Shown here: piece after piece, positions 35,374-39,739 of the stretch
Layout: each line of letters begins with the position of its first letter
Position numbering within the stretch: position 1 is the stretch's first letter
DNA from: Thermodesulfobacteriota bacterium
Lineage (GTDB): Bacteria; Desulfobacterota_D; UBA1144; Nemesobacterales; CSP1-2
Direction: 5' to 3'
Assembly: GCA_036397855.1 (NCBI GenBank)
Contig: DASWID010000033.1
Coordinates: 1 to 39,739 of the forward strand
DNA length: 39,739 nucleotides
Position numbers and translations under genes: made by a program
The notes under the pieces: generated by a model
Databases searched by the model: none
What the model was told of the DNA's origin: nothing
What the model saw: only the letters and a program-made list of their open reading frames with translations

Positions 35374-35613
35374 TTGATAAAGATATCGAGACATGCCAGA
35401 AACAACATGAGATTCTATGAAATATCTAAACAAGATATTCAAAAGACGGTAGAATTACCTGATATCGTAGATAAAGAAGGAGAAAAGATGATAGCTATCA
35501 AAAATTTTCAGGATAGATTCTCGGGTTTTCCACTCAAGGTGGTATGTGAAAAAATTGAAGAAGAATTATTCGTTATTACAGCCTATCCACTAAAAAAGAA
35601 AATGTGGAGGTAA
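35374..35613 (+). CDS. DUF4258 family small protein (toxin-like)
   Basis: 79 residues. The pattern SRHARNNMRFYEISKQDI, VELPDIVD, LKVVCEKIEEELFVITAYP matches DUF4258, a small alpha/beta fold related in outline to RelE/BrnT-type toxins; activity is unproven. It starts with TTG at 35374 behind a weak GAGAAG site. It ends in GGAGGTAA, where GGAGG is also the ribosome site of the following DUF2283 gene, so the two are tightly coupled. Highly basic C-terminus. Confidence 0.7.
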   Translation: MIKISRHARNNMRFYEISKQDIQKTVELPDIVDKEGEKMIAIKNFQDRFSGFPLKVVCEKIEEELFVITAYPLKKKMWR

Positions 35614-35618
35614 AACTT

Positions 35619-35825
35619 ATGAAAGTAAGATACGACAAGGAATCCGACGCGGCCTATATCCAGATGTCATCCAAAAAGCCTGAAGGTGCAATTGAGATGG
35701 CTGAAGGTGTCATTCTTCATACAACATCAAAAAATGAGATTGTTGCTATAGAGATACTTGAGGCTGCTAAAAAGATTCCGATAAGGACACTGTTCAAACT
35801 TGAACTGACCACTTCAGGCATTTAA
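35619..35825 (+). CDS. DUF2283 family small protein (partner of DUF4258)
   Basis: 68 residues: MKVRYDKESDAAYIQM, EGVILHTTSKNEIVAIEILEA is the whole DUF2283 fold, a short beta-rich domain of unknown function often coded after DUF4258. The ATG at 35619 has GGAGG seven bases upstream inside the preceding gene's end. By position it would be an antitoxin or partner; this is inference. Confidence 0.78.
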   Translation: MKVRYDKESDAAYIQMSSKKPEGAIEMAEGVILHTTSKNEIVAIEILEAAKKIPIRTLFKLELTTSGI

Positions 35826-37161: not shown

Positions 37162-37383
37162 ATGGCTACATTTGATAGAATTACTTTTGATCCAAAGACA
37201 ATGGGTGGTCGTGCGTGCATTCGTGGCATGCGTATACCCGTCTCTATAATCATAGGCCAGATCGCGCACGGCGCCACTGTTGAAGAGATCCTTACTGATT
37301 ATCCAGACCTTGAGCCGGAAGATATCAAGCAAGCTCTGGAATATGCCGCATGGCTGACACAGGAAGAGGTCAGCACTACTTAA
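37162..37383 (+). CDS. DUF433 antitoxin-like protein
   Basis: 73 residues: RITFDPKTMGGRACIRGMRI, PVSIIIGQIAHGATVEEILT, DYPDLEPEDIKQALEYAAW is the complete DUF433 domain, a winged-helix-like fold common as the antitoxin of DUF5615 toxins. The ATG at 37162 has GGAGG nine bases upstream. The DUF5615 gene follows six bases after its stop. Confidence 0.88.
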   Translation: MATFDRITFDPKTMGGRACIRGMRIPVSIIIGQIAHGATVEEILTDYPDLEPEDIKQALEYAAWLTQEEVSTT

Positions 37384-37389
37384 TATAAA

Positions 37390-37770
37390 ATGAGATTCCT
37401 TGCTGATATGGGCGTTGCGCAAAGCATAGTAGGCTGGCTTAGGAATGAGGGTCATGACGCTGTTCATTTACGGGAAGAAAAACTCCACCGCCTATCTAAT
37501 GGCGCAATCTTTGAGAAGGCGTATGCAGAAAGCAGAGTTATCCTGACTTTTGATCTTGATTTTGGGGAGATCATTGCACTTTCTGGTGGAAAGCCGGTAA
37601 GTGTCATTCTTTTCAGGCTACATAATACAAGGGCAGCCCATGTAATGGAGAGATTAAAAAAGGTTTTGAAAGACTCAGGGGATGATCTGGAGAAGGGAGC
37701 CATAGTTGTTGTAGAAGAGTCCCGCCATCGTACCAGGCGTTTACCAATTGGTACAAAAGGAGCAGAGTGA
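37390..37770 (+). CDS. DUF5615 PIN-like toxin
   Basis: 126 residues. FLADMGVAQSIVGWLRNEGHDAVHLRE, then VILTFDLDFGEII, is the DUF5615/Mut7-C-like PIN fold; Asp5 and the FDLDF aspartates are candidates for metal binding and RNA cleavage. With DUF433 upstream it makes a standard type II toxin-antitoxin pair. The ATG at 37390 shows no good ribosome site, consistent with coupled translation. Activity is inferred from family. Confidence 0.85.
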   Translation: MRFLADMGVAQSIVGWLRNEGHDAVHLREEKLHRLSNGAIFEKAYAESRVILTFDLDFGEIIALSGGKPVSVILFRLHNTRAAHVMERLKKVLKDSGDDLEKGAIVVVEESRHRTRRLPIGTKGAE

Positions 37771-38275
37771 CGGTATCTTGATACAAAGTAACAACACCAA
37801 GAAAAAAGTCCGGGAAAGACTATCTTGTGAACGCCTCTATTGGGAAGCCACCCCATGATCCTGAATCCTGTCACGGGCGCTTCAATACCCCACCCGTTCA
37901 CCCTGTCCTGAGTTGAATCAAACGGCCCGGTCGAATGGCCTGCACTGACTAAAATCGACCTGTTGGCTGGGTCGAACAGATCTCAAGAGTTGCTCCCGAG
38001 GATTGTTATCGGGAATCCACAGACGTGTCATTGCGAGTGGCAAGGCCACGAAGCAATCTCCTCCTTATCATCTTCGCAAAAAGCGAAGCCCTGTGGCAAT
38101 CTCCTTTTTATTTCTTCAAGAATTAGGATACTCAAACGGTAAGAAAGAAAAGGACAAGAATCCGGAAGTTCATGATGAGGGAGATAGGAAAAACCTTCAA
38201 AAAATAGCAGGGAAGAAGAAGAAAAAGAAAAATAACTCATTGATTCATGCCTGATAATCATCTAGCCAGCCCCTC
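37771..38275. other. Repeat-rich intergenic stretch before the IS element
   Basis: Holds a GTTCACCCTG...GTCGAATGG segment near 37900-37950, the second TTGTTATCGGGAATCCA at 38003-38019, the second 34-bp repeat at 38027-38060 and a partial third copy with CTTCGC-AAAAA-GCGAAG ending GGCAATCTCC near 38071-38105. No gene. Confidence 0.5.
38027..38060. repeat. Dispersed 34-bp hairpin repeat, copy 2
   Basis: Same ends and spacing as 31867-31900; the inner stem here is GTGG-CAAGG-CCAC, so base pairs changed together. A degenerate third copy follows at about 38071-38105. Confidence 0.75.
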
Positions 38276-38302
38276 GAATAACCCACCATTGGTGGGTTAT
38301 TC
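38276..38302 (+). repeat. Perfect 12-bp hairpin at the 5' side of the IS110-type element
   Basis: GAATAACCCACC (38276-38287) and its complement (38291-38302) enclose ATT. It lies about 20 bases before the transposase ribosome site, so it may block read-through translation from outside or be part of the element's left end. No matching arm was found beyond the transposase. Confidence 0.8.
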
Positions 38303-38335
38303 TTAATGAATCTTAGTCAACAAGGAGGGGCTGTA

Positions 38336-39346
38336 ATGATGCTATATTGTGCAATAGATTTACATTCGGACAATAACGTTTTAGTTATCATCAATAGTAA
38401 TGATAACATATTGTTTCAAAGACGCCTGCCCAATGATCTGGGGGTAGTGCTAAGTGTACTGGAACCTTATAAACACAGACTTGTGGGAGTTGCCGTTGAA
38501 TCCACGTTCAACTGGTATTGGTTGGTAGATGGTTTAAGTGAAGCTGGTTATACCACCACTCTGGTGAACACAGCTAAGGTTAAGCAGTACGAGGGATTAA
38601 AACACACTGAGGATAAGTATGACGCCTTTTGGTTGGCACATCTGATGCGATTAGGGATATTGCCTAAGGGATACATCTATCCTAGAAAAGAAAGAGCTGT
38701 GAGAGACCTACTGCGTAAGAGGGGCCAACTGGTTAATCATAGAACCATCCATGTACTTAGCATACAGAATCAATACTGGAGGAATACGGCGATTAAATTA
38801 AAAGCGGATTACATCAAGCGAAGGAGTGATTATTTAGAGGACCTTGAGGATGAGAACATTCAATTGGCACTCTCTAGCAACTATGAGGTTATGCGAGCAT
38901 CGCACAAGCAAATAGGAAAGATTGAGAAACGAGTTAAGCAACAGATGAAATTAAGGCCTGAATATGAGCTGCTTCTTGGGGTGGATGGAATTGGATATAT
39001 ACTTGCTCTAACGATTATGTTAGAGACTGGAGATATAAGTAGGTTCAAGAAGGTAGGAAACTACGCCTCATACTGCCGCTGTGTGGAGAGTAAACACACT
39101 AGTAATAATAAGAAGAAGGGTAAAGGGAATGAAAAGAATGGCAATAAGTACCTGGCTTGGGCTTTTGTTGAGGCAGCTAATTTTGCAACGCGATATAGTG
39201 AGAAGGCAAGGCGGTTTCATCAACGAAAGATGGCAAAGACAAATAACGTAGTTGCAACAAAAGCGTTGGCTCACAAACTGGCAAGGGCATGTTATTACAT
39301 AATAAGAGACCAGGTGCCTTATGATGAGGATAAATTATTTGGATAA
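38336..39346 (+). CDS. IS110-family transposase (DEDD recombinase)
   Basis: 336 residues from the ATG at 38336, which has AAGGAGGGG five bases upstream. The N-terminal RuvC-like DEDD domain has D8 (YCAIDLH), E55 (VAVEST), D93 and D96 (TEDKYDAFWLA). The C-terminal Transposase_20 domain covers about 205-290 (ELLLGVDGIGYILALTIMLE), with Ser252 or Ser256 in CRCVESKHTS as the candidate catalytic serine, then KYLAWAFVEAANFATRY. All key residues are present and the frame is intact, so the enzyme may be active. IS110 recombinases are guided by an RNA made from a non-coding end of the element. Confidence 0.93.
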   Translation: MMLYCAIDLHSDNNVLVIINSNDNILFQRRLPNDLGVVLSVLEPYKHRLVGVAVESTFNWYWLVDGLSEAGYTTTLVNTAKVKQYEGLKHTEDKYDAFWLAHLMRLGILPKGYIYPRKERAVRDLLRKRGQLVNHRTIHVLSIQNQYWRNTAIKLKADYIKRRSDYLEDLEDENIQLALSSNYEVMRASHKQIGKIEKRVKQQMKLRPEYELLLGVDGIGYILALTIMLETGDISRFKKVGNYASYCRCVESKHTSNNKKKGKGNEKNGNKYLAWAFVEAANFATRYSEKARRFHQRKMAKTNNVVATKALAHKLARACYYIIRDQVPYDEDKLFG

Positions 39347-39349
39347 GGA

Positions 39350-39645
39350 GTTTGAATGAAACGGTGAACCGGTTCTGGGGTTGGTTAAAAACCACAATGC
39401 CTGATTGGAAGCCGTTTCATTCGCAATAATATGATGCTGGTTATTAGTCTGATGCGCCTAAGCCATGAGCCAAAAAGGGGTTGGAAACCACAGAGATGGT
39501 AAGCCACAGGTCTGTTATAAACAAAGTGGACATGGTTTGGTACCGAAGATTTTTTGGGGCTTCTAATGAAGCCAGGGACGATTGATCGTCTTGATCCCGA
39601 TGGGTGACTGGTGCGGATCAGCTTAAGCTGATACTAATCCTTAAA
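39350..39645 (+). ncRNA. Candidate structured RNA / bridge RNA after the IS110 transposase
   Basis: GAATGAAACGG (39354-39364) pairs exactly with 39412-39422, closing a large loop that contains the palindrome GAACCGGTTC. Three compact hairpins follow: 39558-39573 (GGCTTC/GAAGCC), 39577-39590 (GACGAT/ATCGTC) and 39617-39632 (ATCAGCTT/AAGCTGAT). No coding frame fits. Bridge RNAs are encoded in a non-coding end of IS110 elements, on the right side in the IS1111 group; expression and exact limits are inferred. Confidence 0.45.
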
Positions 39646-39694: not shown

Positions 39695-39739
39695 ATGAAA
39701 AAAATTAAATGCAAAGAATTTCTTTACCCTATTGACAGG
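39695..39739 (+). CDS. Possible start of a gene cut by the window end
   Basis: ATG at 39695 opens a frame that stays open to the last base (MKKIKCKEFLYPIDR). No strong ribosome site precedes it. Too short to identify. Confidence 0.25.
   Translation, partial: MKKIKCKEFLYPIDR

What the first reader, a model, noticed from the sequence alone, without database searches (positions are those of the whole stretch)
39347..39645. Highly structured region after the IS110 transposase: candidate bridge RNA
About 300 non-coding bases hold an 11-bp long-range stem closing a large loop, an inner palindrome, and three compact hairpins in a row. IS110 recombinases are guided by RNAs transcribed from a non-coding end, with loops that pair with donor and target DNA. 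The left flank here has only about 60 bases between hairpin and start codon, so the right side is the better candidate, as in the IS1111 group. A complete element would be a new programmable recombinase system.
Basis: partly seen in the sequence, partly recalled or inferred. Interest (0 to 1): 0.7.

Follow-up and report, generated by a model that had tools for sequence, protein, structure and literature searches.

The report
Bridge RNA of an IS110-family element
The structured stretch after this jumping gene's enzyme is a conserved guide RNA whose loops spell out where the element inserts and which ends it joins, so this is an RNA-guided DNA-inserting element of a recently discovered kind, with some unusual details.

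Summary
The region folds far better than shuffled sequence (z = -3.9). It is conserved behind the transposase in about 60 relatives (49-82% aa identity). There 27 consensus pairs form in 94% of cells, against 26-40% when slid, and 23 of them show double-sided changes. Comparison of contigs and relatives fixes the element's ends: TG|ATAATCATCTAGCC... on the left (38254) and ...GGCTAATGGG|YG 14 nt beyond the contig end, about 1.5 kb in all. Its target is a dispersed genomic repeat, TTCAYGCC-YG-ACCCC, with 11 empty copies. Guide segments in the RNA change together with the flanks of each relative: left- and right-target guides and two-base handshakes, surviving permutation within clades. The RNA lies downstream and its guide order is that of IS1111 elements. 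Subterminal inverted repeats and a circle-junction promoter are present. However, the transposase lacks the IS1111 GL-P-SG motif (Ser-Asn in 69/69) and branches outside the IS1111-type sequences tested (ISGsu4-like clade). A second loop also tracks the left target, which I have not found described in the papers read. No transcript or activity was tested.

The parts
38252..38253 (+). core dinucleotide TG at the left junction; left target ends ...TTCATGCC at 38251
   Evidence: Empty copies of the repeat read AYGCC-YG-ACCCC; relatives share TG|ATAATCAT with unrelated flanks
38254..38335 (+). left end (LE) and 5' leader: ATAATCATC, sTIR, hairpin
   Evidence: Conserved across relatives up to 38254, then flanks diverge
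38263..38274 (+). left subterminal inverted repeat TAGCCAGCCCCT (right copy TAGCCAGTCCCT runs from the window end into C61/C44)
   Evidence: The right-end sequence changes with it across relatives
38267..38275 (+). CAGCCCCTC, pairs with the Shine-Dalgarno segment 38325-38333 GAGGGGCTG
   Evidence: Pairing kept in relatives: mean 6.85 nt against 5.23 permuted
38306..39346 (+). IS110-family transposase ORF; family start probably 38336; D18, E65, D103, D106, S266-N267
   Evidence: Pfam and NCBIfam above cut-offs; residues
39354..39422 (+). domain 1: target-binding loop closed by 39354-39364/39412-39422
   Evidence: Cognate arms pair at -25.9 against -15.9 kcal/mol for swapped arms, P 1e-4
39373..39381 (+). 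right target guide TTCTGGGGT (pairs with top strand ACCCCAGAA; 9/9 at the C44 flank)
   Evidence: RT against revcomp guide 5.53/7, permuted 4.01, P 5e-5; within clades P 1e-4
39397..39403 (+). left target guide ATGCC plus core TG (same letters as left target CATGCC-TG)
   Evidence: LT against guide 4.21/6, permuted 2.25, P 5e-5; within clades P 1e-4
39404..39405 (+). handshake bases AT of the target loop, match the first two bases of LE
   Evidence: Second base matches LE in 47/47 relatives, T or A; held-out L177 is G/G
39450..39620 (+). domain 2: multiloop closed by 39450-39457/39613-39620
   Evidence: Closing helix 96% paired, 5 of 7 pairs with double changes
39458..39540 (+). long arm of domain 2 with the second target-like loop
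   Evidence: 13-pair helix, 91.8% paired, 11 pairs with double changes
39508..39514 (+). second left-target-like segment AGGTC-TG
   Evidence: Tracks the left target across relatives, P 5e-5, within clades P 2e-4
39548..39554 (+). probable right donor guide GATTTTT, complementary to core G plus LE with one mismatch and one wobble
   Evidence: 6-7 of 9 identities to LE in most relatives; no covariation test
39600..39606 (+). left donor guide ATGGG-TG, same letters as right end TAATGGG-TG
   Evidence: Near-invariant ATGGGTG in both RNA and right end
39607..39608 (+). handshake bases AC of the donor loop, match the first two bases of right target ACCCC
   Evidence: +1 matches in 89% of 54 against 49% permuted, P 5e-5; +2 matches 58/58, two of them T/T; within clades P 2e-4
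39732..39737 (+). TTGACA, -35 hexamer of the circle-junction promoter (17 nt to GATAAT of LE)
   Evidence: 17 or 18 nt spacing in 32 of 41 relatives

Best explanation
The region encodes the bridge RNA (seekRNA) of a complete IS110-family insertion sequence of about 1.5 kb. Inferred cycle: the element excises as a circle; joining its ends builds a promoter (TTGACA from the right end, GATAAT from the left end) that transcribes the transposase gene and the 3' RNA. [quoted passage not shown] Domain 2, a multiloop, reads the circle junction: one segment matches the right end plus core, another is complementary to the left end. The DEDD/Ser recombinase, presumably as a tetramer, joins target and donor at the core. 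After strand exchange the two bases following each left guide pair with the other DNA (handshake). The element therefore inserts, in one orientation and without adding bases, into TTCAYGCC-YG-ACCCC of a repeat found many times in this genome. Shown by computation: conserved structure, element ends, target, guide-flank covariation, handshake covariation. Inferred: transcription, binding, order of events.
For: Fold z -3.9. Structure covariation: 94.2% of cells paired against 26-40% when slid; 313 double-change cells against 92 in shuffles. Stem of domain 1 covaries. Left and right target guides track each element's own flanks, also when guides are permuted only within average-linkage clusters of transposases at 65% identity. 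Handshake bases: 47/47 LE+2 against the base after the left target guide, RT+1 against the base after the left donor guide P 5e-5. Natural reprogramming: L116/L120 RT TCGCGATA, L139 TTGCAATA, L144 TTACTAC, each matched by its own guide. Held-out elements not used in the tests: L176 RT TCAACGAT 8/8; L177 third handshake state G/G. Empty sites: 11 copies of AYGCCYGACCCC, control 0. Circle-junction promoter. Published precedent: PMC11208160, PMC11187229, PMC11208158.
Against: No RNA, protein or transposition data. The right donor guide is only partly complementary and invariant, so untested by covariation. The left target guide is short (five informative bases, 34-45 of 48 matching). One right junction reads CG where the left reads TG, so the core may be YG or one base off. 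The window copy's own right flank is not known, because the assembly collapses two copies (C61 or C44). Permutation tests do not fully remove shared ancestry.
Confidence: 0.93

Rival explanations
1. The structure is a 3' untranslated region regulating or stabilising the transposase message, and the target matches are by-products of conservation.
For: It does sit in the 3' UTR of the transposase gene and the leader also has a regulatory-looking hairpin.
Against: Segments in loops change in step with DNA outside the element (left and right flanks), including between close relatives; an mRNA stabiliser has no reason to do so.
Confidence: 0.03
2. The element belongs to the IS1111 group proper, and its RNA is an ordinary IS1111 seekRNA.
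For: Downstream noncoding region of about 410 nt, subterminal inverted repeats, top-strand guide 5' of bottom-strand guide, as published for IS1111 elements.
Against: No GL-P----S(t)G motif: CR-V...SN in this clade, Ser-Asn in 69/69; in the tree the GLVP-type sequences form a separate clade.
Confidence: 0.15
3. The second loop's match to the left target is not a guide but a leftover of duplication between the two loops, kept similar by chance or gene conversion.
For: Only the left half tracks the target; its right-side partner does not (P 0.17 within tight clades); in several relatives (L106, L110, L091) it has not followed a changed target.
Against: It tracks the left target within clades (P 2e-4), and in L144, L120, L139 it is the same as the first guide over five or more bases at unusual targets.
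Confidence: 0.45

Closest known systems
IS1111-group seekRNA elements (ISEc11, ISPa11, ISKpn4; PMC11187229)
   Same: RNA downstream of the transposase gene; subterminal inverted repeats; top-strand match 5' of bottom-strand match; promoter formed at the circle junction; natural retargeting between relatives
   Different: Transposase lacks the IS1111 GL-P----S(t)G motif and branches elsewhere; the conserved RNA is longer (about 320 nt against 82/154 nt RNAs reported for ISEc11); extra loop tracking the left target
IS621 bridge RNA and recombinase (PMC11208160, PMC11208158)
   Same: Target loop and donor loop, left and right guides for both DNAs, two-base handshake, DEDD plus Ser catalytic residues
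   Different: RNA is in the right end, not the left; guide order reversed; handshake bases follow the left guides (bottom strand) and not the right guides; donor loop is a multiloop; core TG not CT; Ser-Asn in place of Ser-Gly
ISGsu4-like IS110-family elements (named in record AP028202, L176)
   Same: Transposase about 50% identical, same clade, same RNA, same ends
   Different: Different targets and guides; I found no published description of their RNA in the papers searched

Membership tests
IS110 family (DEDD recombinases) | Pfam DEDD_Tnp_IS110 and Transposase_20; NCBIfam IS110 equivalog | tested here: met
   55.2 and 56.2 bits over cut-offs 29 and 21.3; NF033542 176.9 over 140
IS110 family (DEDD recombinases) | D, E, D, D and catalytic Ser | tested here: met
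   Present in the window protein; D1 in 54 of 55 and the other four in every relative that covers the position
IS110 family (DEDD recombinases) | SG in a G--P----SG motif (conserved in IS110-group transposases, PMC11187229) | tested here: not met
   Ser followed by Asn in 69/69; G and P absent; IS621 has SG
Bridge RNA systems | Conserved structured RNA at the longer noncoding end | tested here: met
Bridge RNA systems | Guides complementary to both strands of the target, flanking the core | tested here: met
Bridge RNA systems | Guides complementary to donor (circle junction) | tested here: inconclusive
   Left donor guide identical to the right end; right donor guide only partial; donor sequences too invariant for covariation
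Bridge RNA systems | RNA bound by the recombinase and required for transposition | not testable with these tools
   Needs RNP purification and assay
IS1111 group | Subterminal inverted repeats of 7-17 bp | tested here: met
   TAGCCAGCCCCT/TAGCCAGTCCCT, covarying across relatives
IS1111 group | Longer noncoding region downstream; top-strand guide 5' of bottom-strand guide | tested here: met
   About 410 nt right against 82 nt left; guide order
IS1111 group | Transposase related to IS1111 over its full length, GL-P----S(t)G motif | tested here: not met
   Motif absent; separate from GLVP-type sequences in the tree (small reference set)

The most novel reading that the evidence does not exclude
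The RNA carries two left-target guides: one in the target loop and a second in an arm of the donor multiloop, next to the right donor guide. The second domain could then read the left junction (left target plus left end) of the integrated element and direct excision, while the first domain directs insertion. How one bridge RNA serves both excision and insertion is a question left open in the IS621 structural paper (legend seen). In addition, because the handshake bases follow the left guides, bottom strands rather than top strands would be exchanged first in this group.
Probability: 0.25. Interest if true: 0.75.

Novelty: new variant of a known kind. Interest (0 to 1): 0.5.

Why it matters
It gives a well-aligned bridge RNA family, with element ends, core, guides, handshakes and natural target changes, in a clade whose transposase signature differs from both the IS621 and IS1111 types. 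That is a ready set for testing retargeting and strand order, and for asking how one RNA serves excision and insertion. The practical use, programmable DNA insertion, is already known for this kind of system.

Tried and rejected
Rfam search of the whole window: no match. Viral contigs: no relatives. First core assignment GA was dropped for TG, because relatives have A on the left but T, G or C on the right after TG. A conserved RNA on the left side was looked for and not seen: only the element end, sTIR and SD hairpin. RNAalifold did not recover the stem of domain 1 because the arms misalign; it was tested instead by duplex energies of matched against swapped arms. The second loop's right-side segment as a right-target guide: rejected (P 0.17 within tight clades). 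Consensus scans for promoters and terminators inside the integrated element gave nothing above chance. TIGR-Tas model hit (26.6 bits, cut-off 100) discounted.

Full report
What is there. The window is a whole contig (C33) of a 3.1-Mb draft genome; its nearest relatives bear Desulfobacterota/Deltaproteobacteria titles. ORF 38306-39346 is an IS110-family transposase. The reported structure is real: the 11-bp stem is 39354-39364/39412-39422, and the region folds at z = -3.87 with no shuffle as good.

Ends and target. The last 119-127 bases of the window are the start of two other contigs, C61 (reverse complement) and C44, and a second left end lies on C177, so the genome has at least two copies. 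Left: repeat ...TTCATGCC-TG then ATAATCATCTAGCC. Right...CTATTGACAGGGACTGGCTAATGGG then YG-ACCCC. Many empty copies of the same repeat read ...AATAACTCATTTATTCAYGCC-YG-ACCCC without the element. AYGCCYGACCCC occurs 11 times, the reversed control 0 times. The element is therefore about 1.5 kb (38254 to 14 nt beyond the window), with about 82 noncoding bases on the left and about 410 on the right. A decayed right end without transposase lies on C173.

Relatives. A scan of genome contigs gave 80 loci. Their left ends share TGATAATCATCTAG with unrelated flanks, and their downstream regions share one RNA. On 57 sequences the consensus structure has 34 pairs, 24 with compensatory change. For 27 of these pairs, 94.2% of cells pair, against 74.5% in shuffles and 26-40% in slid versions; 23 pairs have double changes. 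RNAalifold missed the stem of domain 1 because of alignment; matched arms pair at -25.9 kcal/mol against -15.9 for swapped arms, P 1e-4.

Guides. In domain 1 a 5' segment is the reverse complement of the right flank and a 3' segment repeats the left flank plus core. Right flank against guide: 5.53 of 7 against 4.01 when guides are permuted among elements. Left flank against guide: 4.21 of 6 against 2.25 (both P 5e-5). Permuting only within clusters of similar transposases keeps both significant. Clear cases of natural retargeting: L116 and L120 TCGCGATA, L139 TTGCAATA, L144 TTACTAC on the right; L114 ACG, L144 AGT, L097 GCA on the left. Two plasmid elements not used in these tests behave as expected on the right side: L176 matches 8 of 8, L177 matches 7; on the left L176 matches 4 of 5 and L177 only 2 of 5. 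In domain 2, ATGGGTG repeats the element's right end plus core, and GATTTTT is mostly complementary to the left end. The base after ATGGGTG equals the first base of the right target far more often than permuted (P 5e-5), and the second matches in 58 of 58, including two T/T changes. The second base after the left target guide equals the second base of the left end in 47 of 47, T or A, and G/G in held-out L177. These correspond to the handshake bases described for IS621, here attached to the left guides.

Second loop. The long arm of domain 2 contains a segment that tracks the left target too (3.38 of 6 against 2.26, P 5e-5; within tight clades P 2e-4), but its right-side partner does not track the right target (P 0.17). 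In some relatives it has not followed (L106, L110, L091). I could not find this described in the papers read, but figures are not held, so I cannot say it is unreported. The role in excision is speculation.

Expression. Joining the ends gives TTGACA-17-GATAAT; the spacing is 17 or 18 in 32 of 41 relatives. The left inverted repeat pairs with the Shine-Dalgarno segment and this is kept (6.85 against 5.23 nt), which may keep transposase translation low.

Placement. Published work reports bridge RNAs in the right end of IS1111 elements (one predicted in 93%) and in the left end of IS110 elements, donor-binding bases in multiloops in many IS1111, reversed guide order in IS1111, and some IS110-type elements with downstream noncoding regions. 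This element has the IS1111 layout, but its transposase lacks the motif of that group and lies outside it in a small tree; Ser is followed by Asn in 69 of 69. I therefore describe it as an IS110-family bridge-RNA element of an ISGsu4-like clade with IS1111-like layout.

Limits. All evidence is comparative. Permutations reduce but do not remove shared ancestry. The reference set for the tree is small. The core may be TG or YG.

Noticed in passing
38267-38275 and 38325-38333: The left inverted repeat can pair with the Shine-Dalgarno segment of the transposase gene; pairing is kept in relatives with compensating changes (G004: CAGTCCCTC/GAGGGACTG).
   Followed up: partly
39508-39514: Second left-target-like segment in the donor domain that partly follows target changes across relatives.
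   Followed up: partly
L023:1127-1310 (contig C173): Decayed right end of a related element, 79% identical, without a transposase gene.
   Followed up: no
38083-38254 and about 20 other places in the genome: Dispersed repeat ending ...AATAACTCATTTATTCAYGCCYGACCCC serves as the target; the genome also has 17 Y1_Tnp (REP-associated type) matches, and one such gene (C125, L163) ends directly at TGACCCC, as if the repeat came from such genes.
   Followed up: partly
transposase residues 266-267: Catalytic Ser is followed by Asn, not Gly, in 69 of 69 relatives; the sister Vibrio sequence (L178) has Ser-Ala.
   Followed up: partly
L104:3789-4128: In one relative a short insertion follows the left donor guide (GATGGGTGTCCCCCAAGAGGA...), beginning like a right target TCCCC; it may be a small insertion at the guide itself.
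   Followed up: no
37162-37770: DUF433 and DUF5615 gene pair, a toxin-antitoxin-like arrangement, just left of the element.
   Followed up: no
35374-35825: Overlapping DUF4258 and DUF2283 gene pair, another possible toxin-antitoxin pair.
   Followed up: no
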